Assembly (NCBI GenBank): GCA_947074225.1
Contig: CAMTOX010000006.1
Location: forward strand, 1-15,050
DNA: 15,050 bases
Origin: an uncultured bacterium
GTDB lineage: Bacteria; Bacteroidota; Bacteroidia; Bacteroidales; Paludibacteraceae
Direction: 5' to 3'
The translations under genes and the position numbers were made by a program. Shown in pieces: positions 1-15,050 of this stretch (the first letter of the stretch is position 1; every line of letters starts with the position of its first letter). The notes beneath the pieces were generated by a model, which was not told the origin of the DNA, searched no databases, and was given only the letters and a program-made list of their open reading frames with translations.

Positions 1-20
1 ACAGCGCTGCGTTTTTCCAT
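1..20 (-). CDS. possible 5' end of a further minus-strand gene (only 6 codons visible)
   Basis: An ATG on the minus strand at 20-18 opens a frame reading MEKRSA up to the window edge. It has the same orientation as rlmH and would lie about 100 bases downstream of its stop, so it could be the next gene. Six codons are far too few to identify a product or to prove coding. This is recorded only because a gene could continue off the left edge. Confidence 0.2.
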
Positions 21-104
21 GATGTGTGTGGATTTATGTGAATGGAAATACTTTCTGATGTAATAAATTAAAACTTAATTCTCTGAATATCTTCTTTATA
101 ACAA

Positions 105-118
105 GACACTATAGTGTC
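105..118. other. 14-bp perfect palindrome just downstream of rlmH
   Basis: GACACTATAGTGTC is a perfect dyad with no spacer. It begins 2 bases past the rlmH stop codon (123-125, minus strand). It could be the core of a weak terminator, but no U-run follows on the minus strand. It could equally be an operator for whatever lies to the left. The palindrome is seen directly; any role is inference. Confidence 0.35.
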
Positions 119-122
119 CTAA

Positions 123-614: not shown

Positions 615-646
615 CTCATTTTTATTTCGTATAAAAGAAAAATGTT

Positions 647-654
647 TAACTTTG
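647..654 (+). promoter_or_regulatory. candidate -7 element for the DUF4783-nadC transcript
   Basis: TAACTTTG is a perfect match to the Bacteroides -7 box TAnnTTTG on the plus strand. It lies about 135 bases before the first gene of the pair. No clear TTTG -33 box sits 19-21 bases upstream, and the implied leader is long and AT-rich, so the assignment is weak. Confidence 0.3.
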
Positions 655-681
655 TCCTCGATTGACAGTTAAAACATAATG

Positions 682-712
682 CAAATGTCGTTTATTTAAT
701 AATAAAATGCAA
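682..712 (-). promoter_or_regulatory. candidate Bacteroides-type promoter for rlmH
   Basis: On the minus strand, TTG (712-710) is followed after 20 bases by GACATTTG (689-682). This is one base off the Bacteroides -7 consensus TAnnTTTG, and the spacing is right for a -33 TTTG/TTG element. It would give a leader of roughly 60 bases before rlmH. The call rests on a motif match only. Confidence 0.35.
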
Positions 713-789
713 CATTTTCAATAAAATATATTCACATAGCCTTATATCTAAATCTAACACAATTTTATTCATCATTAATTTACACAATT

Positions 790-1179
790 ATGAGAACACT
801 TTTATCTCCTTGGCGTGTACTGATGTTATTATTTGTCATCTCATTAAGTAGCATGGCAACTGCACAAACTGTCGATAATATTGCTTCTGGTTTTGCCACA
901 GGCAATATAACTATTGTAAAGAAATATCTTAACAATAATGTAGAATTGGTTATTCAACATGAAGACAATATCTACTCAAAAGAGCAACTAAGTGTGGTAT
1001 TGGACGACTTTTTCAAGAAAAATTCTCCTTCCAGATTCACTATTGCTCATCAAGGGACTCGCGATAATGCCCAATTTGTTATCGGGAATCTTGATACAAA
1101 AAAAGGAACATATAGAATTTATATTCTAATCAAACACAATTTAATACATCAATTACGTATAGAAAATCCAAATGATTGA
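790..1179 (+). CDS. small secreted DUF4783-type protein
   Basis: The product has 129 residues. It starts with a Sec signal peptide (basic start, hydrophobic core at about residues 9-20, likely cleavage after ATA, before Gln26). The mature domain of about 100 residues has an alternating pattern (e.g. YILIKHNLIHQLRIE near the C-terminus) suggestive of a small cystatin/NTF2-like alpha+beta fold. From its position directly before nadC and its overall look I assign it to the DUF4783 family of Bacteroidota, whose function is unknown; this assignment is from memory of the family and neighbourhood, not a search. The frame overlaps the nadC start by 8 bases (stop TGA at 1177-1179, nadC ATG at 1172), so translation of the two is probably coupled. 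Nothing links it biochemically to NAD synthesis. It should be exported to the periplasm. Confidence 0.72.
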   Translation: MRTLLSPWRVLMLLFVISLSSMATAQTVDNIASGFATGNITIVKKYLNNNVELVIQHEDNIYSKEQLSVVLDDFFKKNSPSRFTIAHQGTRDNAQFVIGNLDTKKGTYRIYILIKHNLIHQLRIENPND

Positions 1180-2014
1180 CAATTTAGATGCTTTAATTCA
1201 ATTATGGTTCGCAGAGGACATTGGCGATGGCGACCAGACAACGCTCTCAAGTATTCCTGCCGATGCTATGGGTGCTTCACAACTCATCATTAAAGAAGAT
1301 GGAGTATTAGCAGGTGTTGAAGTGGCAAAACGCGTGTTTCATGCCTTTGATCCAGAGTTAAAAATGACACAGTTCTTACACGATGGTGATAAAGTAAAAG
1401 TGGGCGATATTGCCTTTGTAGTAGAAGGACGCATACAGTCACTATTACAAACAGAGAGACTGATGCTTAATATTATGCAGCGCATGAGTGGAGTTGCTAC
1501 TCGTACGGCAGAATATGTAAAACTACTTGAAGGTACCAATACACGCGTATTAGATACACGTAAAACTACTCCTGGGTTACGTTTGCTTGAAAAAGAAGCG
1601 GTAAAGATTGGTGGTGGATGTAATCACCGCATTGGACTTTACGACATGATCTTACTTAAAGATAACCATGTTGACTTTGCAGGAGGCATTGATAAAGCTA
1701 TTATCCGTGCTCAAGAATATTTGAAAGAGAAAGGTAAAGATTTGAAGATAGAGATTGAAGTACGCTCTTTCGATGAGATTAGACAAGTGATGCAAGTGGG
1801 CGGAGTAGACCGAATTATGCTTGATAACTTCTCAACTGAGGATACTCGCAAGGCCGTTGAGATGATTAATGGTCAATTTGAAACCGAATCATCGGGGGGA
1901 ATTACTTTCAATACACTTCGCGATTATGCGCTTTGTGGTGTAGATTATATTTCTGTTGGAGCACTCACACACTCTGTAAAGAGTTTGGATATGAGTTTTA
2001 AAGCAGTGAAATAA
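1172..2014 (+). CDS. nadC: nicotinate-nucleotide pyrophosphorylase (carboxylating), quinolinate phosphoribosyltransferase
   Basis: NadC converts quinolinate plus PRPP into nicotinate mononucleotide, CO2 and pyrophosphate, the step where de novo NAD synthesis joins the salvage pathway. The 280-residue length is normal for the type II phosphoribosyltransferase. The N-terminal part carries EDIGDGDQTT (15-24). The barrel shows ERLMLN (95-100), TRKTTPG (129-135), GGCNHR (148-153), LLKDNH (161-166), EIEV (194-197), LDNF (217-220), SGGI (241-244) and SVGALTHS (261-268). These supply the Arg, His and Lys residues that hold the quinolinate carboxylates and the PRPP phosphates, and the Glu/Asp residues around the metal site. 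The start overlaps the upstream secreted-protein gene by 8 bases. The nadA and nadB partners are not in this window. Transcription probably ends at the palindrome just downstream. Confidence 0.97.
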   Translation: MIDNLDALIQLWFAEDIGDGDQTTLSSIPADAMGASQLIIKEDGVLAGVEVAKRVFHAFDPELKMTQFLHDGDKVKVGDIAFVVEGRIQSLLQTERLMLNIMQRMSGVATRTAEYVKLLEGTNTRVLDTRKTTPGLRLLEKEAVKIGGGCNHRIGLYDMILLKDNHVDFAGGIDKAIIRAQEYLKEKGKDLKIEIEVRSFDEIRQVMQVGGVDRIMLDNFSTEDTRKAVEMINGQFETESSGGITFNTLRDYALCGVDYISVGALTHSVKSLDMSFKAVK

Positions 2015-2030
2015 CTCATCGGTAAAAGAC

Positions 2031-2078
2031 AAATAAATAAGAGAGACAACTTAATTAAGTTGTCTCTCTTATTTATTT
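2031..2078 (+). terminator. perfect 48-bp palindrome, terminator after nadC
   Basis: The arms 2031-2054 and 2055-2078 are exact reverse complements (24 bp each, with TTAATTAA at the centre). The strand ends in a mixed A/T run (CTTATTTATTT). It begins 16 bases after the nadC stop. A strong stem followed by a U-rich tail fits a rho-independent terminator, and the symmetry would let it act in both directions. Confidence 0.8.
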
Positions 2079-2670
2079 ACATATACTTAGAGTGAAACTT
2101 TGACCAAAACTATAATCTAAAAATGCAGTGGTTTCTGGGTAATAGCTACTTAATTAAACAATTAATAATAAGAAGATCATCTTTATTATACTTTTAAAGA
2201 AACTACAAACCCTCTATTTAGCTATGACTATTGTGCTAAACCATTTCCTTTATGACCTCTTTTAAGAGCTATATCAAATAGTTTAATCATTCACTAACAA
2301 TCCGCACCAAATAGACTAATAATTTTCTCTTTATAACTATTATAACCATTTTCATATGCCTAAATTGTAATATTTATAATTACACACATTGAAACGTTTA
2401 AATTTTATTACCGCTATACAAATATATTCAACGTTCCTTTTTGTTTTCAGAGAATAGGTTCTATATTTCTTTTCTCGTTTAAGTAACGATAGTCAACATA
2501 TGTTTATCAATAACGACAAAAGTGTTGCAAATAGGCTATATTATTAGAAGTTTGCTTTAGAATATTCAAAAAAAAACAATTATCTTTGTGAGTTTTAAGA
2601 AGTAAAATTAATCTATTGATAATAAAACGTTTAGAATATAAAGCAATATTGCTTCAACATCTAACGTGAA
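2079..2670. other. AT-rich intergenic stretch before aspS, no gene seen
   Basis: About 590 bases without an open frame of useful length on either strand. It is strongly AT-rich and rich in stop codons. It has no tRNA-like cloverleaf, no tandem repeats and no recognisable remnant of a protein. The only items picked out are the aspS -7 element at 2581-2588 and a 14-bp palindrome, AAGCAATATTGCTT, at 2641-2654 in the presumed aspS leader. Confidence 0.6.
2581..2588 (+). promoter_or_regulatory. -7 promoter element for aspS
   Basis: TATCTTTG matches the Bacteroides primary-sigma -7 consensus TAnnTTTG exactly. TTTAG at 2556-2560 lies 20 bases upstream and is a weak -33 candidate. Transcription would start near 2595, giving a leader of about 90 bases to the preferred start codon at 2686. 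Confidence 0.55.
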
Positions 2671-2685
2671 ATGCAAAGAATCATT

Positions 2686-4440
2686 ATGTATAGAAACCAC
2701 ACGTGTGGCGAGTTACGACTTGCCAATTTGGGAGAAACCGTTACCTTGGCCGGTTGGGTACAACGTATTCGTAAAATGGGAGGAATGACTTTCATTGACT
2801 TACGCGATCGTTATGGTATTACTCAGTTGGTATTTAACCAAGAAGTAGATGCTGAACTCTGCGAACGTGCCAATCATCTTGGTCGTGAATATGTACTTCA
2901 AATTGTGGGTAAAGTAGCAGAACGTAGTGCTAAAAACAACCAATTGCCAACTGGCGATATTGAGATTATTGTTTCAGAACTTAACGTGCTTAATGCTGCA
3001 GAAACACCTCCTTTTACTATTGAAGATGAAACAGATGGTGGAGACGATATTCGTATGCAATACCGTTATTTAGACCTACGTCGTAACCCTGTGCGTGCTA
3101 ATTTAGAACTTCGTCATAAGATGGCATTTGAGGTACGTCGTTATCTTGATGCACAAGGTTTCTTAGAAGTAGAGACTCCAGTATTGATTAAGTCTACTCC
3201 TGAAGGAGCTCGCGACTTTGTTGTACCTAGTCGTATGAACCGTGGACAATTTTATGCCTTACCACAATCGCCACAAACATTTAAGCAATTGCTTATGGTT
3301 TCTGGCTTCGATCGTTATTTCCAAATTGTAAAATGTTTCCGCGATGAAGACCTACGCGCCGACCGTCAGCCTGAGTTTACTCAAATAGACTGCGAAATGT
3401 CGTTTGTTGACCAGGAAGATGTGCTACAACTATTTGAGAATATGAGCCGTCATCTATTCAAGACCATTAAGAATGTTGATTTAGATGCTTTCCCACGTAT
3501 GACTTGGCACGATGCAATGAAATATTATGGTTCAGACAAACCAGATACACGTTTCGAGATGAAATTTGTTGAACTCATGGATATTTTAAAAGGTCATGGC
3601 TTTCCAGTTTTTGATAGTGCTGCCTATGTTGGTGGTATTTGTGCTAAAGGTGCAGCTTCATATACACGTAAACAATTAGATGCTTTAACCGATTATGTGA
3701 AACGTCCACAAATAGGGGCTAAAGGAATGGTATATGCTCGTGTAGAGGCCGATGGTACCGTAAAATCGAGCGTAGATAAGTTTTACACTCAAGAGGTATT
3801 GCAAAGCCTTAAAACAGCTATGCAAGCTGAACCTGGCGACTTAATTCTAATACTTAGTGGCGACGATGTTCAAAAGAGTCGTAAGCAGCTTTGTGAATTA
3901 CGTCTTGAGGTAGCTTCACAATTAGGCTTGCGCGACAAGAATAAATTCTCATGCCTATGGGTGGTAGATTTTCCTCTTTTTGAATGGGACGAAGAGACAC
4001 AACGTTTCTATGCTATGCACCACCCTTTCACCGCACCAAAACCTGAAGATATTCACCTTTTAGATAGTGATCCGGGAGCTGTACGTGCAAATGCTTACGA
4101 CATGGTGGTAAATGGTGTTGAAGTTGGTGGTGGCTCTATTCGTATTTTCGATAAGACTTTACAGGCAAAAATGTTTGCACTTTTAGGATTTACACCTGAA
4201 AAAGCAGAAGAACAATTTGGATTCTTAATGAATGCATTCAAATATGGAGCTCCACCTCATGGCGGATTGGCATATGGATTAGACCGCTTTGTCTCTTTAT
4301 TTGCTGGATTAGATTCTATTCGCGATTGCATAGCATTCCCTAAAAACAATCAAGGACGCGATGTCATGATCGATGCTCCATCGCCTATTGACACTGAACA
4401 ATTAGACGAACTTTCATTGAAAATTGACATTAAGGCATAA
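2686..4440 (+). CDS. aspS: aspartyl-tRNA synthetase
   Basis: AspS is a class IIb synthetase that charges tRNA-Asp with aspartate in the cytoplasm. The 584 residues (from Met 2686) match the long bacterial type. Domains: an N-terminal OB anticodon-binding fold (about 1-105, with [21 protein letters not shown]); class II motif 1, RYLDLRR (127-133); motif 2, [18 protein letters not shown] (218-235); a bacterial GAD insertion in the middle; and motif 3, GGLAYGLDR, near 526-534, followed by FPKNNQGRD. The frame is open from an upstream ATG at 2671, but the extra MQRII is not seen in typical family members, which begin M-Y-R-x-H-T-C-G-E-L. I therefore prefer 2686. It is followed by a long imperfect hairpin and then a small membrane-protein gene. 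Confidence 0.97.
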
Positions 4441-4450
4441 CCATTGCTAT

Positions 4451-4522
4451 AATAAAATATGAATAATAACTCTGCTCTAGCTTTACAGAATTAGCAACTT
4501 AGAGTTATATTCATATTTTATT
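4451..4522 (+). terminator. long hairpin after aspS, probable terminator
   Basis: The left arm 4451-4473 (AATAAAATATGAATAATAACTCT) pairs with 4501-4522 almost perfectly, with a single one-base bulge. A 27-base loop separates the arms, and a short T-rich tail (TTTATCTAAT) follows. It starts 10 bases past the aspS stop and ends about 20 bases before the next start codon. It is likely the aspS terminator or an attenuator ahead of the membrane-protein gene. The stem is very AT-rich, so its strength is uncertain. Confidence 0.55.
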
Positions 4523-4543
4523 TATCTAATATAATTAATCATT

Positions 4544-4882
4544 ATGTTTCATTCTATTATCCTTCCGTTAATTGTTTCATCTGTTGCTATCTATTTAACT
4601 GCAGCTATTTTGCCTGGTATCACAGTGAAAAGTTTTTGGTATTCTATAGGAATTGCTATTGTTTTATCTTTGCTTAATGCCATTGTAAAACCCATTTTGC
4701 TTTTCTTATCTATACCAATAAATATACTAACATTTGGAATTTTCACTCTTGTTATAAATGCTGTAATCATCTTGATTGCAAGTGCAATCCTTAACGGATT
4801 CCATGTGCGTAACTTTTGGTGGGCTATTTTATTCAGTTTAATAACCACACTTATAACAAATATTTTCTATTGGTTTTTGTAG
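4544..4882 (+). CDS. PF04020-type four-helix membrane protein ('phage holin 4_2' / YvlD family)
   Basis: A 112-residue integral inner-membrane protein made almost entirely of four hydrophobic segments at roughly residues 4-24, 31-49, 54-81 and 89-111. The diagnostic part is LLNAIVKPILLFLSIPINI (residues 43-61), the conserved LNxxxKPxLxxLxxPxxxLTxG signature of the family annotated as 'mycobacterial 4 TMS phage holin' or YvlD-like, followed by TFGIFTLVINA. Despite that family name, members are widespread chromosomal genes. No lysin, phage or toxin gene is nearby, so I would not infer a lytic role. The molecular function is unknown; in some bacteria relatives sit in envelope-stress operons. The gene stands between aspS and gltX with a hairpin on each side, so it may be expressed separately. 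No clear promoter was identified. Confidence 0.85.
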   Translation: MFHSIILPLIVSSVAIYLTAAILPGITVKSFWYSIGIAIVLSLLNAIVKPILLFLSIPINILTFGIFTLVINAVIILIASAILNGFHVRNFWWAILFSLITTLITNIFYWFL

Positions 4883-4937
4883 AATAAAACATCTTGAAAT
4901 GAATAGTTCTAAATAGTGATTTCCTCTATGCTTAAGG

Positions 4938-4967
4938 CTATAAATTAAATAGCTATTTAAATTATAG
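4938..4967. terminator. AT-rich hairpin after the holin-like gene
   Basis: CTATAAATTAAATAG pairs with CTATTTAAATTATAG across the dyad centre at 4952/4953. The inner 16 bases (4945-4960) are a perfect palindrome and the outer part has one mismatch. It lies 55 bases after the stop and is followed by a modest T-rich run. It may be a terminator, but so AT-rich a stem could also be chance. Confidence 0.4.
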
Positions 4968-5121
4968 AGTCATTTTAATTGTTAACTCTCTGTGTTTTAG
5001 CTATAACAACTTTTATTTTGGTGTAAGAGATTTTGTAAATCATTATTGTAGGAAACAACAGAATTACCTTTAAATGCACTTTAGAACTACTTATATTCTA
5101 ATAATAACAACTTAAACATTG

Positions 5122-5145
5122 CAGACCTAATATATTTTTAGGCTG
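5122..5145 (+). promoter_or_regulatory. small leader hairpin directly before gltX
   Basis: CAGACCTAA pairs with TTAGGCTG around a 7-base loop (8 bp with one bulged A). It ends 16 bases before the gltX ATG, so it would sit at the ribosome entry site. It might affect initiation; no regulator is known from the sequence. No good TAnnTTTG promoter was found in the 280-base gap before gltX. Confidence 0.25.
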
Positions 5146-5161
5146 TTTATAATACTTATTT

Positions 5162-6685
5162 ATGGAGCGTAAAGTAAGAGTAAGATTTGCCCCTTCGCCA
5201 ACCGGGGCGTTACATATTGGTGGTGTGCGCACTGCTTTGTACAACTATCTATTTGCTAAACAGCATAATGGAGAGTTTATTTTTCGTATCGAAGATACAG
5301 ATAGTAACCGTTTTGTGCCCGGTGCCGAAGAGTATATCTTAGAGTCGTTTAAGTGGTTAGGAATACCATTTGACGAGGGAGTATCTTTTGGTGGTAATTA
5401 TGGACCATACCGTCAGAGCGAACGTAAAGAGATTTATCGTAAATATGTGGATCAATTGTTAGAGAATGGCCATGCCTATATTGCTTTTGATACCCCTGAA
5501 CAGTTGGATGCCAAACGTCAAGAAGTGGCAAATTTCCAATACGATGCCTCAACGCGTAATAGCATGACTAACTCTTTAACTTTGAGTAAAGAGGAGGTTG
5601 AAAACCGTATTGCCAATGGCGAAAAGTATGTGGTTCGCGCTATGATTACCCCTAATCAGGAGATTGTTGTACACGACATTATTCGTGGCGACGTACATGT
5701 AAACTCTTCAATATTGGACGATAAAGTGCTCTATAAATCGGCAGATAACTTGCCAACTTATCACCTTGCCAATATTGTAGACGACCATCTCATGGAAATT
5801 AGTCACGTTATTCGTGGCGAAGAGTGGTTACCCTCTGCCCCACTTCACGTTTTACTTTACCGTTTCTTTGGTTGGGAAGATACCATGCCGCAATTTGCAC
5901 ACCTTTCATTATTGCTTAAACCAGATGGTAATGGTAAATTAAGTAAGAGAGATGGCGATAGATTAGGATTCCCGGTTTTCCCTCTACAATGGACTGACCC
6001 TAAAACAGGAGAGATCTCTTCTGGTTATCGTGAGAGCGGATATTTCCCAGAAGCAGTAATAAACTTCTTAGCATTATTAGGTTGGAATCCTGGTAACGAT
6101 CAGGAAATAATGAGTATGGAAGAGATGATTCAACTATTCCGTCTTGAGAAATGTAGCCGCAGTGGTGCTAAATTTGATTACGAGAAAGGAAAATGGTTTA
6201 ACCACATCTACCTTCAGAAAAGAGACAACCATAACTTAGCTACACGCTTTATGCCTACTCTAAAAGAAAAAGGTGTTGAGTGCGATGCTGAAAAATTGGC
6301 TACCATTATTGGGTTAATAAAATCGCGTTGTAGCTTTGTAAGTGAATTTTGGGATCAATGTTATTTCTACTTCTTAGCTCCCGAAAGTTATGATGAGAAA
6401 GCCGTTCAGAAACGTTGGAAAGAAGATACCCCTAATTTACTTAATGCTTTAGTGAATTACATTGAAACACTTTCAGATGAAGAGTTTAACTCTATTGAAG
6501 TGAGTGAGAAAATGGTAATCTCATGGTGTGAATCGCAAGGCTATAATTTAGGGGCTGTAATGAATCCTTTCCGTCTATCGGTGGTTGGAGCTCTCAAAGG
6601 ACCTCATATGTTTGAGATAACAGCACTACTAGGAAAAGAAGAGACTTTACGTCGTGTGCGCAAAGCCTTAGAAACCATAGCATAA
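5162..6685 (+). CDS. gltX: glutamyl-tRNA synthetase
   Basis: GltX is a class I synthetase that charges tRNA-Glu with glutamate; the product also feeds tetrapyrrole synthesis in organisms using the C5 route. The 507 residues begin [15 protein letters not shown], with the HIGH-type motif as HIGG (18-21) and the KMSKS loop as KLSKR (259-263). [14 protein letters not shown] (42-47) and [16 protein letters not shown] (196-211) are standard active-site landmarks. The region where some GluRS enzymes bind zinc reads AYIAFDT (105-111) without cysteines, so this is a zinc-free form. The segment after KLSKR contains the extended FPVFPLQW...[24 protein letters not shown] typical of Bacteroidota. The C-terminal part is the helical anticodon-binding domain. 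A stem-loop with a T-tract follows and prmA starts soon after. Confidence 0.97.
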
Positions 6686-6692
6686 TATTATC

Positions 6693-6737
6693 AATAGCCT
6701 ATCTCACCCTTTAAATAGGTGAAATAGGCTATTTTTT
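6693..6737 (+). terminator. rho-independent terminator or attenuator between gltX and prmA
   Basis: AATAGCCTATCTCACC pairs with GGTGAAATAGGCTATT (one C/A mismatch) around a short loop, followed directly by a run of six T. This is the cleanest classical terminator in the window. It ends only 25 bases before the prmA start, leaving no room for a full promoter in between. Confidence 0.8.
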
Positions 6738-6762
6738 GTTTCACAATATAATCTGTATCGTT

Positions 6763-7602
6763 ATGAATTATATCAAAGTAACCTTCCGAATAGCCAATGC
6801 AGAGGAGTATACTGCCGATCTTTTGGCCTCATTTCTTGGTGAGATTGGATTTGAGAGTTTTGAAGAGACCACACAAGGTATTATTGGCTATTGTCCAGAA
6901 TCCTTGTTCGATGCTGCACAGATTCAACCTGTGTTAGACGAATTGCCTGGAGAGGCACAGATAACTTATAGAACAGATTTGATTGAAGATCAGAACTGGA
7001 ATCAAGTATGGGAAGATAACTATTTTGAACCGATAGTAGTGGGAGGACATTGCTGTATACATAGTGCACAGCGTCTGCCAGATAAGAAGTACAAGTACGA
7101 CATTATTATAAACCCTCGACAAGCTTTTGGAACCGGATCGCACGAGACCACACGCATGATTGTGAGCCTATTAATGGATATGAGCTTACATGGAAAAACC
7201 GTTATTGATATGGGATGCGGCACTGGAGTATTGGCTATAATGGCTTCTTTATGCGGTGCCAAAGAACTCTTCGCAGTCGATATCGACCCTTGGTCGCAAC
7301 AAAACGCCATTGATAATATTGCTGCTAACAACATTCATAACATTCAAGTGGCTTTGGGCGATGCCAACCTACTGGCCGATAAAAAATGTGATTTGTTAAT
7401 GGCGAATATCAATAGAAATATTCTTATTCAAGATATGGATAAATACTATAATGCCATAGAAGCAGGAGGAAAACTTATGATGAGTGGATTCTATTCGGAA
7501 GATTTACCACTCATTAAAGCAAAAGCAATATCTCTTGGAATGGAGCAAAAAGAGGTGATGACCAACAACGATTGGGTGGCAGTATGCTATAAGAAGTTAT
7601 AA
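6763..7602 (+). CDS. prmA: ribosomal protein L11 methyltransferase
   Basis: PrmA is a SAM-dependent class I methyltransferase that methylates the N-terminus and lysine side chains of ribosomal protein L11. The 279-residue product has the usual two parts: an N-terminal substrate-recognition domain (about 1-65) and a Rossmann-fold catalytic domain. Motifs are DQNWNQVWEDNYFEP (76-90), INPRQAFGTGSHETT (116-130), the SAM loop DMGCGTG (149-155), the acidic VDIDP (172-176) and ANINRNI (214-220), which matches the family's catalytic N-x-N motif. The frame extends upstream to a TTG at 6736, but that lies inside the T-tract of the gltX terminator and adds nine residues with no family support. I chose ATG 6763 (MNYIKV). 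Expression probably depends on read-through from gltX or a promoter inside gltX. Confidence 0.95.
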   Translation: MNYIKVTFRIANAEEYTADLLASFLGEIGFESFEETTQGIIGYCPESLFDAAQIQPVLDELPGEAQITYRTDLIEDQNWNQVWEDNYFEPIVVGGHCCIHSAQRLPDKKYKYDIIINPRQAFGTGSHETTRMIVSLLMDMSLHGKTVIDMGCGTGVLAIMASLCGAKELFAVDIDPWSQQNAIDNIAANNIHNIQVALGDANLLADKKCDLLMANINRNILIQDMDKYYNAIEAGGKLMMSGFYSEDLPLIKAKAISLGMEQKEVMTNNDWVAVCYKKL

Positions 7603-7614
7603 GCAAAATAGATG

Positions 7615-7665
7615 ATATATGAAGAGGGGATGAAAACTTATGGTTCTCATCCCCTCTTCATATAT
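7615..7665. terminator. bidirectional terminator between convergent prmA and 7677-8216
   Basis: A perfect 19-bp stem: arm 7615-7633 (ATATATGAAGAGGGGATGA) and arm 7647-7665, with a 13-base loop. It fills the gap between the prmA stop (7602) and the stop of the converging gene (7677). The GC-rich middle (GAGGGGATGA) makes it stable, and A/T-rich flanks on both sides allow termination in both directions. Confidence 0.8.
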
Positions 7666-7676
7666 TAAAAAGAATA

Positions 7677-8216
7677 TTAATCTTCGTCTTGACTATCGTC
7701 TTTAGTGCTTCCAAAAACTTTACGGCGTATTTCAAACTTTTCTATCAATACTCCTTTGGTAGGCAGCCACACTTTTAAGAGATGTGTTTTACCTCTTAGA
7801 AGCTTGACATCGAAGGTGGCACGAGCACGGTTTGTGAGTGCACTATTCTTTAATTCAAGCTCTTGTACAGGCAGTTCGTCTACACCTAGAGTAAGTTTAA
7901 CACTATTTCCTGCTATCTTCTTGTCAATCTTATAAGTTACAGTAACTTCAAACTCTCCACCCAATGATTTGGCTATGAAGTTATAATCTACAAAAGGTTG
8001 TAATAACCTACTGGTCTCTTTATCCTTATACTTACTGTCAATTCCTTTAATGTAGTTTTTGCTACCTGAGGTTACTTTCTCAATAGAACGTGAATTACGA
8101 TAGTCTGTAGCCTCAAAACTTACTCGCATATTCTTCATTTCATGCTTTCCTTGAGCCATTACACTACCCACTGCAACCAGTGCTAATAGTATAACCAATA
8201 GTTGTTTTCTCAACAT
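7677..8216 (-). CDS. secreted protein of unknown function
   Basis: I do not recognise the family. From Met 8216 the product has 179 residues and opens with a clear Sec signal peptide (MLRKQ, then a hydrophobic core LLVILLALVAVGSV, likely cleavage at VMA before Gln22). No lipobox cysteine is present, so a soluble periplasmic or surface location is likely. The mature part is rich in alternating beta-strand patterns (FEVTVTYKI, VKLTLGVDELPVQELEL, ARATFDVKLL), suggesting a beta-sandwich of the carbohydrate-binding or Ig-like sort, and ends in an acidic tail (DDSQDED). The frame extends ten codons further to an ATG at 8246, but that ATG lies inside the -7 promoter box (8244-8251), so 8216 is the better start. 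It converges on prmA, with which it shares a terminator. Confidence 0.8.
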   Translation of the reverse strand: MLRKQLLVILLALVAVGSVMAQGKHEMKNMRVSFEATDYRNSRSIEKVTSGSKNYIKGIDSKYKDKETSRLLQPFVDYNFIAKSLGGEFEVTVTYKIDKKIAGNSVKLTLGVDELPVQELELKNSALTNRARATFDVKLLRGKTHLLKVWLPTKGVLIEKFEIRRKVFGSTKDDSQDED

Positions 8217-8243
8217 AATTTTTTGTCTAATTGTTTTACATTG

Positions 8244-8251
8244 CAAAGTTA
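8244..8251 (-). promoter_or_regulatory. -7 promoter element for the secreted-protein gene
   Basis: On the minus strand this reads TAACTTTG, an exact TAnnTTTG match. Transcription would start around 8237, giving a leader of roughly 20 bases before ATG 8216. That excludes the upstream ATG at 8246 as a start on this transcript. No good -33 box was seen at the expected distance. Confidence 0.5.
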
Positions 8252-8352
8252 CAACTATATCTATTATGACATAAGTAGTTAACTATTAATGTAAACTAAA
8301 TAGAAAAAAGGAGTTCAAAAACCAGATTGTTATGAAATTTCACTAGTCTTGC

Positions 8353-9333
8353 CTATTTTTGAAAACTCTCAAAATATTTTAGGAACTGAGTTCTATTAAA
8401 TCGTTCTTCGCCCTCTTGATGTTTGCAACTAAATTTACCTTTATACTCTTCTATGCCAAGATACGAGAGTTTATCTTGCCATTCGCCAATCATTTCCAAT
8501 GCTTTACCTATCCAAGCATTACCCTCTTGATAGAGCACGCTGCAAATCTCTACAGCACTAGCACCAACAAGAATTGCTTTTACAATATCTTCCGGTGAGT
8601 GTACCCCACCTGAAAGTGCATAATCTATGCTATTTACTTTCCCTGAGGCTATACCAATCCAGCGTAGTGGTAATGCTAAATCTTGTTCACTGCTTAGCAC
8701 ATGTCCGGGAACATAATCCAATTTATAAACGTCAATATCGGTTTGATACATTCTATTAAACATTACAACGGCGTTGGCACCCTCTGCTTTAAGTCTATAT
8801 GTTAAACTTACCGGATTTGTTAAGTTTGATCCCAACTTGATAATGATGGGTAGTTTCACCGCTTTACGAATCTCTCTAAGAATATCTACATGGGTCTGTT
8901 CGTAGCTCCCATATACATAGTCTATCTCGGTTTGTACGCTCATAATATTGAGTTCAAAAGCATCGGCACCTGCCTCTTCTATTAGTTTAGCAAACTCTAC
9001 CCATTCGCCAATGTTCCAACAGTTTATACTTGCTATGATTGGAATGTCGCAAGCCGCTTTACATCCCTTAATAAGGGTTATATATTCATCTAAAGCATGG
9101 TTCTTTAAATAGAGCTGTAAATAGTCTAATCCTTCGGTATAGGTGCTATCGTCAATATAACTATCGGTTTGTTTAACTATATTCTCTTCAAATAATGATT
9201 TTAATACTACGGCTCCAACACCGGCATTAGCAAGCTCTTGAATATGTTCTACGCTATTTGTACGGTTGCAACTAGCTGCAATGATTGGATTCTTTAATTC
9301 CAATCCGGCAAAGGTGGTTTTTAAGTTACTCAT
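8353..9333 (-). CDS. dihydroorotate dehydrogenase-like FMN protein (noncanonical active site)
   Basis: A 326-residue TIM-barrel flavoprotein of the DHOD superfamily, of the kind annotated in Bacteroidota as 'dihydroorotate dehydrogenase-like protein'. The start MSNLKTTFAGLELKNPII (1-18) matches that subgroup. FMN-site features are K45 (VVLKS), ELNI (127-130), IIKLGSN (164-170), NR (193-194), SGGV (241-244) and GASAVEICSV (257-266). By eye, S132 falls where class 1 DHODs have the catalytic Cys of N-L-S-C-P-N and class 2 a Ser, but the following Pro-Asn is Val-Gln (NIMSVQ), so orotate binding is doubtful. I would not call it pyrD. No pyrimidine gene is adjacent. The true substrate is unknown. 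It lies 136 bases upstream of the secreted-protein gene in the same orientation, but that gene has its own promoter. Confidence 0.85.
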   Translation of the reverse strand: MSNLKTTFAGLELKNPIIAASCNRTNSVEHIQELANAGVGAVVLKSLFEENIVKQTDSYIDDSTYTEGLDYLQLYLKNHALDEYITLIKGCKAACDIPIIASINCWNIGEWVEFAKLIEEAGADAFELNIMSVQTEIDYVYGSYEQTHVDILREIRKAVKLPIIIKLGSNLTNPVSLTYRLKAEGANAVVMFNRMYQTDIDVYKLDYVPGHVLSSEQDLALPLRWIGIASGKVNSIDYALSGGVHSPEDIVKAILVGASAVEICSVLYQEGNAWIGKALEMIGEWQDKLSYLGIEEYKGKFSCKHQEGEERFNRTQFLKYFESFQK

Positions 9334-9450
9334 ATTAGTTTATGTTTTTATGGCCGACAAGAGCCTTTTTTGAGCTCTCTCTATCGACTTGATTAATATA
9401 CTTTCTTGTATCTCCTCTTAACTGCCATGAAACTGGTAAATTATAAAGAG

Positions 9451-9470
9451 GAGTTCTAAATAATGAACTC
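9451..9470. repeat. GAGTTC...GAACTC inverted repeat
   Basis: GAGTTC (9451-9456) and GAACTC (9465-9470) form a 6-bp dyad with an 8-base AT-only spacer. A further GAGTTC copy occurs at 9479-9484. It could be an operator-like site for the minus-strand DHOD-like gene. The elements are short, so chance is possible. Confidence 0.3.
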
Positions 9471-9518
9471 TTTCATTGGAGTTCAATTTAGATGGAATAA
9501 TTTTATATCTCTACTGTA

Positions 9519-9595
9519 ACGTAGATCTATCTTTATCTTCTCTTTTACTGTTTATTGAGTGTTATACTTATTTTTGAGAGAAGAAAAATCTACGT
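9519..9595. other. possible two-stem RNA structure
   Basis: ACGTAGAT (9519-9526) pairs with ATCTACGT (9588-9595). Nested inside, CTTCTCTT (9537-9544) pairs with GAGAGAAG (9576-9583, last pair U-G), leaving an asymmetric internal loop and a 31-base apical loop. It could be part of an untranslated leader or a small RNA. Only the pairing is seen; the strand and function are unknown. Confidence 0.3.
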
Positions 9596-10110
9596 ACTTA
9601 TATGCCAATATTGATTTATTAATTGGTTATTTGAACTACTCAAAAGGGAATTGGTGAAACCAGTTTCTTAAATCGGACAGTTCTTAATGAACAAATCTCA
9701 TAGATGATTTAATTTTAAAATAGATACTTATATAAATTATATTAATTACAAAAATAATATTATTTTCTTATCTCCAAACAAATAGATTCAAAATATAGAA
9801 AATACTCTTAATTAATTTAGAATCATACTTTCAGATTCAATGGTTTTTACGATATTTGCTTATCACAACAAGGTGTTTTAATAATCTATTTTAAATTAGA
9901 AAGAGATTTAATGTTTCTTGGTGAATCTATTGGTATTGATTGAATATTTTCATCTCAATTTGCCATTCATCTTCTCCTATTAAGGGCATTGACTCCTTTT
10001 AAATGCAAAAAACATACAACAATAACATGCGTTTTCAGAGTTACATTAGCAGTATAGGTTTATTTTAACTCCTCAAATATTACATATTCACTCTATATAA
10101 TCGGTAAACA

Positions 10111-10524
10111 ATGATACAACAAATTGAATTTCAATTACCTTCATGTCATAAAGGTTTTCATCTTATTACCCATTTAGTCACTTCAAAATTGGGGAATCTT
10201 CCAGAGAAAGGTCTATTGCATCTATTTATTAAACACTCTTCGGCAGGTTTGTCTATTAATGAGAATGCCGATCCGGATGTACGTACGGATTTAGATGCCA
10301 TCTTTGATCATTTGGTCAAGGAGCGCGAACGCTACTATACACATATTTACGAAGGCGATGACGATATGCCTGCACATGCTAAATCTACTCTTGTGGGTAG
10401 CTCTATTACGGTGCCCATAAGTAATTACCGTTTAAATTTAGGAACATGGCAAGGCCTCTATCTATGCGAGTTTAGAGAACATGCATCGCCTCGTAAGTTG
10501 GTAGCAACAATTATTGGCGAATAA
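10111..10524 (+). CDS. yjbQ: YjbQ/UPF0047 family protein
   Basis: A 137-residue cytoplasmic protein of the UPF0047/YjbQ family, often annotated as 'secondary thiamine-phosphate synthase enzyme' because some members show weak thiamine phosphate synthase activity; the physiological role is unsettled. The family signature is complete: HSSAGL (42-47), NENADPDVR (50-58), EGDDDMPAHAKS (81-92) and LGTWQGLYLCEFREH (110-124). The conserved His, Asp and Glu residues of these motifs line the putative metal and phosphate site of the trimer. The length is normal and the ATG start gives the expected MIQQIEFQ. It stands alone, with no thiamine genes near. It converges on the CotH-type gene, and its stop codon lies in the left arm of the shared terminator. 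Confidence 0.92.
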   Translation: MIQQIEFQLPSCHKGFHLITHLVTSKLGNLPEKGLLHLFIKHSSAGLSINENADPDVRTDLDAIFDHLVKERERYYTHIYEGDDDMPAHAKSTLVGSSITVPISNYRLNLGTWQGLYLCEFREHASPRKLVATIIGE

Positions 10525-10564
10525 AAAAAGAGGCGTTCTAAACTAGTTAGAACGCCTCTTTTTT
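10524..10564. terminator. bidirectional terminator shared by yjbQ and the CotH-type gene
   Basis: A perfect 18-bp stem: 10524-10541 (AAAAAAGAGGCGTTCTAA) with 10547-10564, and a five-base loop ACTAG. It has an A-run on one side and a T-run on the other, so it forms a classical terminator on both strands. The yjbQ stop (10522-10524) and the stop of the minus-strand gene (10563-10565) both touch the stem; the two genes are only 38 bases apart. Confidence 0.92.
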
Positions 10565-11999
10565 ATAGCTCGTTAATGACTCGCTGTTTGGTTAAAAAGA
10601 AATTGGCTTTGCCATCGCTGCCTCCTTTGTCATTGCCCGTGCGCAGACGGTAGAAATCGCAATTGCCCCACCCTGCCGGATAGTCGTTAATCTCCATATC
10701 CTCATTGGTATCGTTAGCTACATAAGGTTTTATCATGTTTTGCCAATTCACAATACGTTTGTAGGAGCCTGAATATTGAAAGAGGTCAAAATCGTTTACC
10801 AATTCTGCCAAATAACTTTTATAGAGATCATTAAACTCTGGTACCTTTAAGAGTTGTGTTATTAGAGGTCGAGCATCCATATTACCCCAACGTAGTGGAT
10901 TCTGTGTGCCACTATTCTCCATTAGTTCAGAGGTTCCTAAAGTATTGTCGTAATCGTAAGGAATAAAAAGAAACTTGCCCGATTCGTCAAAATAGAAGTA
11001 AAAGTTATTACTATTGTTCCAATAATCGTCCCACATCCCTACCACGACATTTACGGCATAAGCTTTCAAAAGCTCTTCTACATAGATATGCTCCTCTGCC
11101 CACGCTTTTACTTGGCTGCTTTGCAACTTCTTGAGTTCGTTTATAAAAGTCTGCAATTGCAGTTTTGCATCGCTTAAAGCGGTTTTATTGGTCTTTAAGT
11201 CGTAAATATAACTCTTAGAGCCATTACCATGGGCTTTAATATCTTCCACTCCCATATTGTTACTATTGGCATCATCCAATGTAGCTCCCCAAGAGGCTTT
11301 CCATAGGTTCCCATTTTTTCCCGGCAAATGTCCTTGTTCTGCTCTATATTTTAAGAAATCTTTATGTACCCCTTCTAAAAGCACATAAACGCCATAATAA
11401 GCCGGTTGTTCATCGCCTACAATATGTAACGAGAGTCGGCAATAGCTCGCACGAGGAGCGCTCCACACTCCATAGCGTTTAAATAAATCGTAGCAATAGA
11501 TTTCTCGACAATAGTTAGGATCGTCTTTATGCCATTTCAAATTAAAACGATCAACCGAACAGAACTTCTGTTTCTCAATAAATTCATCAAGTCGCAATGC
11601 AAAGTGAGCATGGTGCCAATTGGTTTGGCCGGCCTTGTGCATCTCTCCAGTATTCCCTTCGGGTCTGCGTCGTGAAGTGTTTCCGCGAATGCGAATACCT
11701 ATACTGTCCAACTCAAAAACCTCACTGCCTTTCACAAAGGTAAAGTGAGCTGGTATTAACTCCTTATTGAGGTAATTAATATCGTACATTCGCAACAGGT
11801 TATTCCAATCGTCAAGCTCCACAGTGAGCTTAATCTCTGGTATAGCATCAATATCAAAAAGATAGTCGGAAGTATAAGTGGTAGGTTTGGTGGTGTTATT
11901 TTCACCAGGAACTTCTTCAATAGGGTTACACCCTGCACTAAGTAATAAAGTGCCCATGAAAATGGCATAACTTAATGGGCGTAAAATCTTAATTCTCAT
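10563..11999 (-). CDS. CotH kinase-domain lipoprotein
   Basis: A 478-residue exported lipoprotein. The signal peptide ends in the lipobox LSAGC (20-24), so Cys24 should be lipidated. A low-complexity linker rich in Thr/Asn follows (about 25-45), then a CotH-type domain (PF08757) through most of the rest: RGNTSRR (105-111, the conserved RGN(S/T)S motif), WDDYWNNSNNFYFYF (323-337) and IPYDYDNTLG (346-355). In Bacillus CotH and its relatives, an atypical secreted protein kinase family, the Asp-x-x-x-Asn and D-x-D elements bind catalysis metal and ATP. Here they read D-Y-W-N-N and DYD, so catalytic residues appear kept. Its substrate is unknown; there is no spore-coat context. It should sit on the periplasmic side or cell surface. 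The last codon and stop are inside the terminator shared with yjbQ. Confidence 0.9.
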   Translation of the reverse strand: MRIKILRPLSYAIFMGTLLLSAGCNPIEEVPGENNTTKPTTYTSDYLFDIDAIPEIKLTVELDDWNNLLRMYDINYLNKELIPAHFTFVKGSEVFELDSIGIRIRGNTSRRRPEGNTGEMHKAGQTNWHHAHFALRLDEFIEKQKFCSVDRFNLKWHKDDPNYCREIYCYDLFKRYGVWSAPRASYCRLSLHIVGDEQPAYYGVYVLLEGVHKDFLKYRAEQGHLPGKNGNLWKASWGATLDDANSNNMGVEDIKAHGNGSKSYIYDLKTNKTALSDAKLQLQTFINELKKLQSSQVKAWAEEHIYVEELLKAYAVNVVVGMWDDYWNNSNNFYFYFDESGKFLFIPYDYDNTLGTSELMENSGTQNPLRWGNMDARPLITQLLKVPEFNDLYKSYLAELVNDFDLFQYSGSYKRIVNWQNMIKPYVANDTNEDMEINDYPAGWGNCDFYRLRTGNDKGGSDGKANFFLTKQRVINEL

Positions 12000-12053
12000 T
12001 TAATGGTTTGTTTGGTATTTGTTAGATTTATGAATGGTTATATTTTAATTATG

Positions 12054-12061
12054 CAAAAATA
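12054..12061 (-). promoter_or_regulatory. -7 promoter element for the CotH-type lipoprotein
   Basis: On the minus strand this reads TATTTTTG, an exact TAnnTTTG match. It would start transcription near 12047, with a leader of about 48 bases before ATG 11999. No convincing -33 box was found. Confidence 0.45.
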
Positions 12062-12150
12062 ATCAATAATTTCTTATAAACTCTATTTATTACAGATTGT
12101 TTTGGCAGTAAATAATATACAGTGAAAGCAGGTTTATGATGGTAGATAAA

Positions 12151-12189
12151 AATCAAACTCCTATTATATAAATAAATAGGAGTTTGATT
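12151..12189 (-). terminator. terminator downstream of the aminopeptidase P gene
   Basis: A perfect 15-bp stem: 12151-12165 (AATCAAACTCCTATT) with 12175-12189, and a 9-base AT loop. Read on the minus strand the stem is followed by a T-run (GATTTTTATC), the orientation expected for a terminator of the gene that ends at 12335. It lies about 145 bases past that stop. Confidence 0.7.
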
Positions 12190-12214
12190 ATAGTGTATTA
12201 TAGTGAATTATTTA

Positions 12215-12240
12215 AATGCCTTTTAATAAGAGAAGGCATT
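12215..12240. repeat. short AATGCCTT/AAGGCATT hairpin, with a neighbouring tandem repeat
   Basis: AATGCCTT (12215-12222) pairs with AAGGCATT (12233-12240) around a 10-base loop. Just beside it (12190-12209) TATAGTG occurs twice in a 10-base tandem. Both are in the 335-base gap 12000-12334, which otherwise holds only the CotH promoter and the terminator at 12151; I see no gene there. Confidence 0.35.
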
Positions 12241-12334
12241 AACCATATTTGCTATATGTTTGTTTCATAATTTATTACGCAATCATTATTCTTTATAAAG
12301 CATCTTAACGGTTAATACTTTCATACTTTTTTGT

Positions 12335-13741
12335 TTAAGCTTCTTGTGCCCTTTTCATTAATTTCTCAATGGCTTTAACGCTTTTAGGCAGCGGTTTACC
12401 AAGCACACGGCAACCTTGTTCGGTAATTAAGATATCGTCTTCAATACGTATTCCACCAAAGTTAAAGTAGCTTTTCAACTTCTTGTAGTCAATATATTCA
12501 GTATGCTTACCCTCTTTTTCCCACTGTTGTATAAGTTCTGGAATAAAATAGATGCCAGGTTCAACGGTCAACACGAATCCAGGTTTTAGTTCTCTCCCAC
12601 AACGTAAACTGCGGTGCCCGAAAATATCGCTACGTTTCGTCTGGCAGTCATATCCTACATTATCTTCGCCTAAACCTTCCATATCGTGTACATCTAATCC
12701 CAACATATGTCCTAATCCATGAGGCATAAATAGAGCGTGTGCACCGGCTTTTGTAGCTTCAATAGGGTCGCCTTTCATTAATCCCAATTTTGTTAATCCT
12801 TCGGCAATGATAGTAGTGGCTTTAACGTGTACATCCCAATAGCGTATGCCGGGGCGTGCCATCTTTATGGCTGCTTCGTTAGCTTCTAAAACAATATTGT
12901 ATATTGCCTTTTGTTTGTCGGTAAATTTTCCACTTACCGGAATGGTACGTGTATAATCCGAAGAGTATCCTGAAGTAGCTTCAGCGCCCATATCGACCAA
13001 TAATAAACGTCCTTTATTGAGTTTTAAATGGTGATAAGGGTTGTGTAATGTTTGTCCATTTTGTGAAAGAATAACAGGGAATGAGACGCCTTGTCCATAG
13101 CTTAATGCAATACCTTCGGCCAATCCAGCCAATTCGCGTTCTACCATGCCTGCTTTACAATTCTCCATCACTGCTTTATGCATGCGCACTCCAATATTAC
13201 AAGCCTCTTCTATGGCAGCAATCTCTTCTAGTTGCTTCACGCTGCGTAGTGCTACTACGGCATCGACCAGAATTTGTGAGGCATGTTCGCGTACCTTCTT
13301 CACTGAGATTTCAAGCATCTCGCTAATGAGTAAGTTCTGATCATCGCGGTAAGTTGGTAAATAGTGAATGGTGCGTCCTTCTGTCTGAGCACGTTGAAGG
13401 TAGGCTGGCAAGTCGGCCATCGGCATGGTATCTGTAATGCCACATTGGCCTGCTAGCTCTTGCATGGTAGGCTGAGGGCCCATCCAAATAATATCGTCCA
13501 TGGTATAATCGTCGCCTACAAGAATATCTCTATTGCGGTCAAGGTCTATAATACCCATTAAACCAGACAATTGTTGACCATAGAAATAGATGAAAGAACT
13601 ATCCTGACGGTAGCGATATACGTTCGACTTATAGTTCATTGAGGCTTCGTTGTTACTCATAAAAAGTACCACTCCCCCTTTCATTTGCGACATCAAAGCT
13701 TCGCGACGTTGCTTGTAAATTTCGGGTGTAAACATATTCAA
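12335..13741 (-). CDS. pepP: Xaa-Pro aminopeptidase (aminopeptidase P, M24B)
   Basis: A cytoplasmic dimetal peptidase that removes an N-terminal residue when proline is in second position. The 468 residues show an N-terminal creatinase/prolidase-like domain (about 1-170; VVLFMSNNEASMNYKSN, YRQDSSFIYFYG) and a C-terminal pita-bread M24 domain. The five metal ligands can be placed: D250 (LLLVDMG), D262 (SSDYTRTIP), H345 (HGLGHMLGLDVHD), E394 (TVEPGIYF) and E434 (IRIEDDIL). The probable proton-shuttle His is in HGLGH. No signal peptide is present. The start is ATG 13741 (MNMF) or the second ATG at 13735 (MF...), two residues apart; the sequence does not decide. A good promoter sits about 80 bases upstream and a terminator follows. 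Confidence 0.94.
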   Translation of the reverse strand: MNMFTPEIYKQRREALMSQMKGGVVLFMSNNEASMNYKSNVYRYRQDSSFIYFYGQQLSGLMGIIDLDRNRDILVGDDYTMDDIIWMGPQPTMQELAGQCGITDTMPMADLPAYLQRAQTEGRTIHYLPTYRDDQNLLISEMLEISVKKVREHASQILVDAVVALRSVKQLEEIAAIEEACNIGVRMHKAVMENCKAGMVERELAGLAEGIALSYGQGVSFPVILSQNGQTLHNPYHHLKLNKGRLLLVDMGAEATSGYSSDYTRTIPVSGKFTDKQKAIYNIVLEANEAAIKMARPGIRYWDVHVKATTIIAEGLTKLGLMKGDPIEATKAGAHALFMPHGLGHMLGLDVHDMEGLGEDNVGYDCQTKRSDIFGHRSLRCGRELKPGFVLTVEPGIYFIPELIQQWEKEGKHTEYIDYKKLKSYFNFGGIRIEDDILITEQGCRVLGKPLPKSVKAIEKLMKRAQEA

Positions 13742-13821
13742 TATGATTTTAAGATTAAGTTATTTCTCTGTTTTAGTATCTTCTGAAATATGAAATCTGG
13801 AGAAGATAAAATTAGTTGTCC

Positions 13822-13850
13822 CAAAGATAGAGATTATTTGTGAATTTCAA
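13822..13850 (-). promoter_or_regulatory. promoter of the aminopeptidase P gene
   Basis: On the minus strand TTG (13850-13848) is followed after 18 bases by TATCTTTG (13829-13822), an exact Bacteroides -7 box. The spacer is one base shorter than the usual 19-21. The start of transcription would be near 13815, with a leader of about 75 bases. It is the best two-box promoter in the window. Confidence 0.6.
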
Positions 13851-13921
13851 TTGTATCTATGGTCAACATTTATCTTCTTTTCAAGGTTACTGCTTTTTAT
13901 GGTTTAAGCCATTGTTTTTTT

Positions 13922-13941
13922 CTTCAAAGTACCTTCAAAGT
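13922..13941. repeat. CTTCAAAGT direct repeat
   Basis: CTTCAAAGT occurs at 13922-13930 and again at 13933-13941, separated by two bases. It lies just left of the large hairpin at 13950-14015 in the gap between pepP and the CNNM gene. Confidence 0.5.
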
Positions 13942-13949
13942 CGTATTAA

Positions 13950-14015
13950 AGAGGAATCAAAGAGGAACCAAATTCGATTACTAGGAATCGAATTTGGTTC
14001 CTCTTTGGTTCCTCT
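13950..14015. repeat. 30-bp hairpin built from doubled 11-base units
   Basis: The arm 13950-13979 pairs with 13986-14015 along 30 bp with a single G-U/mismatch, around the 6-base loop ACTAGG. Each arm begins with a tandem unit: AGAGGAATCAA then AGAGGAACCAA on the left, and TTGGTTCCTCT twice exactly on the right. It lies about 100 bases downstream of the minus-strand CNNM gene and could terminate it, but no good U-run follows at the base. The rest of the 371-base gap 13742-14112 holds the pepP promoter and further CCTCTAT copies; a 69-codon open frame across the repeat is probably a by-product of it. Confidence 0.75.
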
Positions 14016-14061
14016 ATGTATGCTCTTAATAGGCACTTTGCCTCTATGAATTTACCTCTAT
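14011..14061. repeat. three CCTCTAT copies next to the hairpin
   Basis: CCTCTAT occurs at 14011-14017, 14041-14047 and 14055-14061; the first overlaps the right base of the large hairpin. The shared CCTCT core also occurs at 14000-14004 inside the arm. This suggests local duplication of a short motif. Confidence 0.45.
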
Positions 14062-14112
14062 TTAGGTCGATAACCATGGTTGGCATCTACCCCACTTCGC
14101 TATTTGGTTTCA

Positions 14113-15001
14113 CTACTCTCTCTTCTCTTTAGAAGTGGTGTTTGAAATATGTTTATATTTATTCATGCGTTCATTCCATTTTTCCCTTGCCAGTTTCTGC
14201 ATATCGGGCACTGTATCTTTTTCGTCCATTATTTCAAGCCCAAAGATAGTTTCAACTACATCTTCCATAGTTATGATGCCTTCAAATGTACCGTATTCAT
14301 TCACCACTAAAGCAATATGCTCTTTATGTTCTAACATTCTTTCCCAGGTGTACGATATGGATTGATCTTCGTTCACAATCATAATTTCGCGTTTAATATC
14401 TATGAGTTTTATGTAAAGTTTATCTTCACTTAACTGTTCTAAAACCTCTTTAGATAAGACATATCCGGTAATATTTTCTGGATGCTCTTCGTATATGGGT
14501 ATGCGCGAATAGGGACGGAAAGATTTATCGCTAAAAAACTCCTCAAGGGTTTCATTCTCGTCGGCAGTAATGGTAACAATTCTTGGTGTCATGACTTCTT
14601 TCACGGTAACATAATCTAGTTTCATCAAGTTTTGAATTACTTTATTCTCTTTAGAATTAAATACGCCCTCGTTACCGGCTGTCTCTACTATGGCCGATAA
14701 CTCTTCACGACTCAAGGTTGCTTCGCTTCTTTTTTTTGTAAATACCTTGGTAATAAGCTCTGAGAGAAGCACTAGAGGGTAACATATGAAGATTAAAACA
14801 CGAATGACTCTTGCCGCTGGCAGAGCCAATTGTTTCCAATAAACAGCACCAATGGTTTTAGGAATAATCTCCGAGAGAACCAATATTAAAAAGGTTAGTA
14901 TGGCCGAAATAATACCAAAGTAGGCGTTACCGAAGAGTTCCACTGCCTGGGCTCCTACTCCGGCTGCCCCTAATGTATGGGCAACAGTGTTGAGCGATAA
15001 T
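14113..15001 (-). CDS. CNNM (DUF21) / CBS-pair membrane protein, N-terminus missing
   Basis: The C-terminal 295 or so residues of a 'hemolysin family' CNNM protein, cut at its 5' end by the contig end. Visible parts: the end of the CNNM/DUF21 membrane domain, with the signature SEIIPKTIGA and two hydrophobic helices (FGIISAILTFLILVL and VIRVLIFICYPLVLL); then a CBS pair (VKEVMTPRIVTI...SRIPIYEE and HIALVVNEYGTFEGIITMEDVVETIFG), the usual nucleotide-binding module; then a short tail ending DEKDTVPDMQKLAREKW. The C-terminal CorC/HlyC domain is absent, so this is the short Bacteroidota form and not GldE. Relatives are linked to Mg2+ or other divalent-cation transport; 'hemolysin' is a historical label. 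About 55-60 residues are missing. The frame appears to continue to a GTG at 15018 but that part is adapter. Confidence 0.92.
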
Positions 15002-15050
15002 AGATCGGAAGAGCACACGTCTGAACTCCAGTCACATTCAGAAATCTCGT
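15002..15050 (+). other. Illumina TruSeq adapter contamination (not genomic)
   Basis: From 15002 the sequence begins AGATCGGAAGAGCACACG and continues through CTCCAGTCAC (15026-15035), the standard TruSeq indexed-adapter sequence. Then comes the 8-base block ATTCAGAA (15036-15043) in the index position and ATCTCGT (15044-15050), the start of the constant P7-side segment. The first A is the normal A-tail/adapter junction. The real insert therefore ends at T15001. As I recall, ATTCAGAA equals the TruSeq HT D705 i7 index. Confidence 0.98.

What the first reader, a model, noticed from the sequence alone, without database searches (positions are those of the whole stretch)
15002..15050. The right end of the window is untrimmed Illumina adapter with a readable sample index
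49 bases match the TruSeq indexed adapter in order: the AGATCGGAAGAGC core, the constant part ending CCAGTCAC, an 8-base index (ATTCAGAA) and the ATCTCGT beginning of the next constant segment. The assembly extended into read-through adapter, so the true contig end is 15001. The index could even identify the sequencing lane sample.
Basis: partly seen in the sequence, partly recalled or inferred. Interest (0 to 1): 0.75.

Follow-up and report, generated by a model that had tools for sequence, protein, structure and literature searches.

The report
Leftover Illumina adapter at contig end
The last 49 bases of this contig are a sequencing-kit adapter with its sample tag, not bacterial DNA; it is a known kind of artefact that recurs all over this draft genome and gives a cut-off gene a false beginning.

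Summary
Confirmed artefact. Bases 15002-15050 equal, letter for letter, the first 49 bases of the Illumina TruSeq i7 adapter: 34 constant bases, index ATTCAGAA, then ATCTCGT. The window is the whole contig C6 of a draft genome (393 contigs, 67.5% complete). There the i7 arm occurs 89 times and the i5 arm 32 times; all 121 copies lie at contig ends and point outward; reversed-pattern controls find 0. The i5 index reads AGGCTATA. The 42-base adapter plus index also sits near contig ends in 15 other public assemblies of several phyla. Homology stops at the junction: the contig-end CNNM/CBS-domain gene lacks about 60 N-terminal residues present in 11 of 11 relatives compared, and its listed start codon lies inside the adapter. 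Tail lengths (i7 at most 55 bases; longer if misread, shorter if the insert end is AT-rich) fit contigs ending at a shared adapter node of a de Bruijn graph, K about 55 (inferred). Such contamination is published (PMC11536531). Trim at 15001. Interest is low.

The parts
15002..15035 (+). constant part of the TruSeq i7-side adapter (A-tail base plus GATCGGAAGAGCACACGTCTGAACTCCAGTCAC)
   Evidence: exact match; 89 copies in the assembly, 89 of 89 at contig ends pointing outward
15036..15043 (+). 8-base i7 sample index ATTCAGAA (the Illumina name D705 is recalled)
   Evidence: of 88 copies long enough to read (of 89, window included), 72 are identical and 16 differ by one base; the same 8-mer is iC705 in a barcode table of PMC6481090
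15044..15050 (+). first 7 bases of the P7-side constant segment (ATCTCGT...)
   Evidence: the longest copies in other assemblies continue ATGCCGTCTTCTGCTTG
14113..15001 (-). genomic part of a CNNM/CBS-domain protein gene cut off by the contig end; about 60 N-terminal residues missing
15002..15018 (-). adapter-derived 5' end of the listed ORF: GTG start at 15018..15016, residues MCSSD, and two bases of the junction codon

Best explanation
The 49 bases are untrimmed Illumina adapter. A library fragment shorter than the read was sequenced through its end into the ligated i7 adapter and index, and the reads entered the assembler with the adapter on. In a de Bruijn graph such reads from many genomes meet at the same adapter k-mers, and the assembler stops each contig there. 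Shown: adapter identity, its recurrence at 121 contig ends with both indices, and the homology break. Inferred: the graph mechanism, K about 55, and thin coverage by longer fragments at this spot.
For: Exact 49 of 49 match. 89 i7 and 32 i5 arm copies in the same assembly, 121 of 121 at distinct contig ends pointing outward; reversed-pattern controls 0 and 0. One index pair throughout: i7 ATTCAGAA exact in 72 of 88 readable copies and one mismatch in 16; i5 AGGCTATA exact in 18 of 32, one mismatch in 11, more in 3. The 42-mer with index has 42 matches in 15 other assemblies, 42 of 42 within 100 bases of a contig end. 11 of 11 relatives compared continue about 60 residues beyond the junction with sequence that the window lacks. 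89 of 89 i7 tails are at most 55 bases; 27 misread i7 tails are longer than 62 clean ones (means 51.2 and 47.3, Mann-Whitney p 9e-12), also when only misreads within the first 42 bases are counted, so that long tails have no more chance to hold one (16 against 72, means 52.0 and 47.9, p 5e-8); clean i7 tails are shorter where the last 8 insert bases are AT-rich (Spearman -0.41, p 0.001). The kind of artefact is published: PMC11536531.
Against: None found against the adapter itself. Against the graph details: no two adapter ends in the bin share their last 55 bases; the left contig end overlaps no other contig, so K was not confirmed independently; six of 32 i5 tails run 86-160 bases and break the 55-base cap; the length-controlled misread test is weaker for i5 (p 0.017, 0.061 and 0.007 for the first 42, 44 and 46 bases).
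Confidence: 0.99

Rival explanations
1. Genuine genomic sequence that happens to resemble the adapter, or a repeat element of this bacterium lying at contig breaks.
For: Genomic repeats also lie at contig ends and recur many times, as these do (121 ends).
Against: Exact match to a synthetic oligo including index and P7 segment; identical 42-mer in assemblies of several phyla; 121 of 121 copies terminal and outward; two arms that share only their first 13 bases, as in the kit; relatives carry coding sequence at this point.
Confidence: 0.003
2. Adapter ligated into a chimera or concatemer during library preparation, rather than read-through of a short insert.
For: It would also give genome-adapter junctions. 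Six long i5 tails end in sequence that is not adapter.
Against: 115 of 121 tails are at most 55 bases long and begin with the arm and index in ligation order. Two of the six long i5 tails were searched in the genome and match only themselves; the other four were not searched.
Confidence: 0.01

Closest known systems
Adapter contamination at contig ends of microbial genome databases (Moeller et al. 2024, PMC11536531; abstract, Results and Methods sections read)
   Same: Adapter at contig ends and its reverse complement at contig starts, next to the i7- or i5-specific arm; in MAGs and isolates; linked to contig breaks.
   Different: Their counts use the 12-base core; here the two index tags, the tail-length cap and the false ORF start are also read out.
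Illumina TruSeq dual-index adapter set (recalled; the two index 8-mers appear as iC705 and iR5_A in PMC6481090, passages seen)
   Same: 34-base constant part, 8-base i7 index, P7 segment; i5 arm with 8-base index.
   Different: No difference found; the copy is cut at 49 bases.

Membership tests
Illumina TruSeq i7 read-through adapter | constant 34-base segment starting AGATCGGAAGAGC | tested here: met
   exact at 15002-15035
Illumina TruSeq i7 read-through adapter | 8-base index followed by ATCTCGT... | tested here: met
   15036-15050; in the assembly 72 of 88 readable copies have the same index exactly, 16 with one mismatch
Illumina TruSeq i7 read-through adapter | i5-side arm present elsewhere in the same assembly | tested here: met
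   32 copies; index AGGCTATA exact in 18, one mismatch in 11, more in 3
Adapter contamination of contig ends (PMC11536531) | terminal, outward-pointing, far more frequent than chance | tested here: met
   121 of 121 arm copies terminal and outward; 13-base core 164 times, reversed control 0 (only part of these 164 places was listed)
Adapter contamination of contig ends (PMC11536531) | reads soft-clipped at the junction | not testable with these tools
   no raw reads held
Adapter contamination of contig ends (PMC11536531) | trimmed contigs can be rejoined | tested here: inconclusive
   window end: no overlapping contig in the genome; among the 121 adapter ends one pair shares a 21-mer, an exact 39-base overlap; ends without adapter were not compared

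The most novel reading that the evidence does not exclude
Adapter tails at contig ends act as a forensic record of an assembly: the tail-length cap gives the assembler's K (here about 55), the tails give both library indices, and the mean tail length estimates how many adapter junctions the whole metagenome held (about 16,000-64,000 by simulation).
Probability: 0.6. Interest if true: 0.15.

Novelty: not a real feature. Interest (0 to 1): 0.05.

Why it matters
It is a quality problem and not biology. The contig should be trimmed at 15001, as should the other adapter-tipped ends of this assembly. Genes called at such ends get adapter-coded N-termini that could enter protein databases (not checked here), and shared adapter k-mers could create false matches between unrelated genomes.

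Tried and rejected
Joining the window's right end to another contig: 14401-15001 matches only itself in the genome. Independent check of K through an overlap at the left end: none. Search for adapter-coded peptides in print (DWSSDVCSSDL, LEFRRVLFRS, TGVQTCALPI and two sub-strings): 0 papers in the held library. Index with its Illumina name D705: 0 papers. The two index 8-mers together: 15 papers, 10 listed; I opened two, one relevant (PMC6481090) and one a chance match inside construct sequences (PMC6344338). General paper searches: one search gave nothing used, one search gave PMC11536531, (20 papers, 5 listed) gave PMC8121793, one search gave two papers seen only as a listing. A protein-database search for a deposited adapter-fused protein was not run.

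Full report
What is there. The last 49 bases, 15002-15050, read AGATCGGAAGAGCACACGTCTGAACTCCAGTCAC + ATTCAGAA + ATCTCGT and equal the first 49 bases of the TruSeq i7-side adapter with that index (adapter letters and the index name D705 are recalled). The leading A is the A-tail added in library preparation (recalled), so 15001 is the last base that can be called genomic. The window is the complete contig C6 of genome G000, which has 2,196,743 bases in 393 contigs and is 67.5% complete, so this is a true contig end.

It is assembly-wide. The 34-base i7 arm occurs 89 times in G000 and the 33-base i5 arm 32 times; both patterns read backwards occur 0 times. I read the sequence of all 121 copies: 60 loci came from those searches and 61 were fetched. 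Each is at a contig end and points outward, and the 121 lie next to 121 different genomic sequences. i7 tails are 35-55 bases; 26 of 32 i5 tails are 43-54 and six are 86-160. The 13-base core occurs 164 times, reversed control 0. Only part of these 164 places was listed, so I do not claim that all are terminal; 164 would be about one in five of the 786 contig ends.

The indices. Of 88 i7 copies long enough to read, 72 carry ATTCAGAA and 16 differ by one base. Of 32 i5 copies, 18 carry AGGCTATA, 11 differ by one base and 3 by more. AGGCTATA is the reverse complement of TATAGCCT. ATTCAGAA and TATAGCCT appear as iC705 and iR5_A in a barcode table of PMC6481090 (passages seen); the Illumina names D705 and D501 are recalled. 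The library can be described by its index pair, but the index does not name a sample. The adapter plus ATTCAGAA gives 42 matches in 15 named assemblies: MAGs of three SRR7610xxx runs (Bacteroides, Parabacteroides, Rikenellaceae, Desulfovibrionaceae, Negativicutes) and MAGs labelled LaPlata, Erken and MJ (Chloroflexi, Planctomycetaceae, Collierbacteria, Spartobacteria and others; that these are lake samples is recalled). The contig ranges show all 42 within 100 bases of a contig end.

Independent biological test. On the minus strand a gene runs off the contig end. Its product has a CNNM transmembrane domain, matched only from profile position 56 of 181, and a CBS domain. The listed ORF starts with GTG at 15018..15016, inside the adapter; start codons further inside the frame were not judged. 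In G000 and 40 relatives, 40 of 41 genomes had some match: 12 close places in 11 relatives, and otherwise weaker matches at 24-35% identity, probably paralogs. Eleven of the 12 close places were fetched and compared (43-54% identity); the second place in G039 was not. In the multiple alignment all 11 have isoleucine at the junction codon, before a shared L..NT stretch, where the window has a leucine with two of its three bases from the adapter. Upstream all 11 continue with about 60 residues, beginning MTLL-, MGLL- or similar, where the window has adapter translation (DWSSDVCSSD). The pairwise BLAST alignments start at the junction codon in 2 of 11 and run 2-6 residues into the adapter-coded part in 9 of 11, which I take as chance extension. 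One relative (L089) has a longer open frame upstream of its likely start.

How it arises. Read-through of a short insert brings adapter into reads. If the adapter is not trimmed, reads from everywhere in the sample converge on the same k-mers, and a de Bruijn assembler ends contigs where paths merge. This predicts a cap on tail length at K, longer tails where the adapter was misread (later merging) and shorter tails where the insert end is common (earlier merging). For i7: cap 55 in 89 of 89; 27 misread tails with mean 51.2 against 62 clean with mean 47.3, Mann-Whitney p 9e-12; AT content of the last 8 insert bases against tail length in clean tails, Spearman -0.41, p 0.001. Because a longer tail has more bases in which to hold a misread, I repeated the test counting only misreads in the first 42 bases: 16 against 72, means 52.0 and 47.9, p 5e-8 (88 of 89 tails). 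For i5 the signs are the same: 13 misread against 13 clean tails of at most 55 bases, p 0.0006; Spearman -0.67, p 0.013. The length-controlled i5 tests give p 0.017, 0.061 and 0.007 for the first 42, 44 and 46 bases; the six long tails were left out of these i5 comparisons. With K=55 the mean clean i7 tail implies about 7.7 shared insert bases, while within the bin the longest shared end averages 3.3, so the merging partners would have to lie elsewhere in the metagenome. A simulation at 62% AT gives mean tails of 47.9 for 16,000 junctions and 46.9 for 64,000. Against this reading: no partner was seen, no two adapter ends in the bin share their last 55 bases, and no overlap at the left contig end confirms K.

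Other assemblies. The 33 SRR-run tails are at most 53 bases (L160 is held two bases short of its contig end, so 48 and not 46 for it), while 6 of the 9 LaPlata, Erken and MJ tails exceed 55 and two reach 99. A lake data set that I take from recall to be the source of those nine was trimmed with Trimmomatic and assembled with Megahit (PMC8121793, passages seen; the word LaPlata is not in its text). Caps that differ by pipeline fit the model but do not prove it.

Did the adapter break this contig? Not shown. No other contig of G000 overlaps 14401-15001. Among the 121 adapter ends only one pair shares a 21-mer within the last 200 genomic bases: C220 left and C250 right, an exact 39-base overlap, shorter than the inferred K.

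Known or new. Adapter-tipped contigs in microbial genome databases are described in PMC11536531 (abstract, Results and Methods read): 1110 of 15,657 MGnify reference assemblies are enriched at p<0.01, about 157 expected by chance, concentrated at contig ends with the i7 and i5 arms next to the core. This window is one more case. The finding is right and is an artefact.

Noticed in passing
window 1-15050: Ordinary gene content by family search: rlmH, DUF4783, nadC, aspS, a 4-TMS membrane protein (PF04020), gltX, prmA, a dihydroorotate dehydrogenase-like protein, a UPF0047 protein, a CotH-kinase protein and an M24 aminopeptidase P. The taxon was not established.
   Followed up: partly
L033, L038, L047, L048, L058, L060 (contig ends of G000): Six of 32 i5-side tails run 86-160 bases into garbled sequence after a misread adapter; perhaps single low-quality read ends carried into contigs. 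Two of the six (L033, L047) were searched and match only themselves in the genome.
   Followed up: partly
L156 and L167, beyond the adapter: In two contigs of other assemblies the full i7 adapter is followed by AAAA and then a run of G, which suggests two-colour chemistry reading past the end of the molecule (recalled).
   Followed up: no
G000 contigs C220 (left end, L049) and C250 (right end, L051): With the adapters set aside the two ends overlap by exactly 39 bases, so they are probably neighbours in the genome.
   Followed up: partly
G000:C83:5207-5932: A second CNNM/CBS-type match in the same genome, 29% identical to the contig-end gene, with a 431-residue open frame; perhaps the GldE-type paralog.
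   Followed up: no
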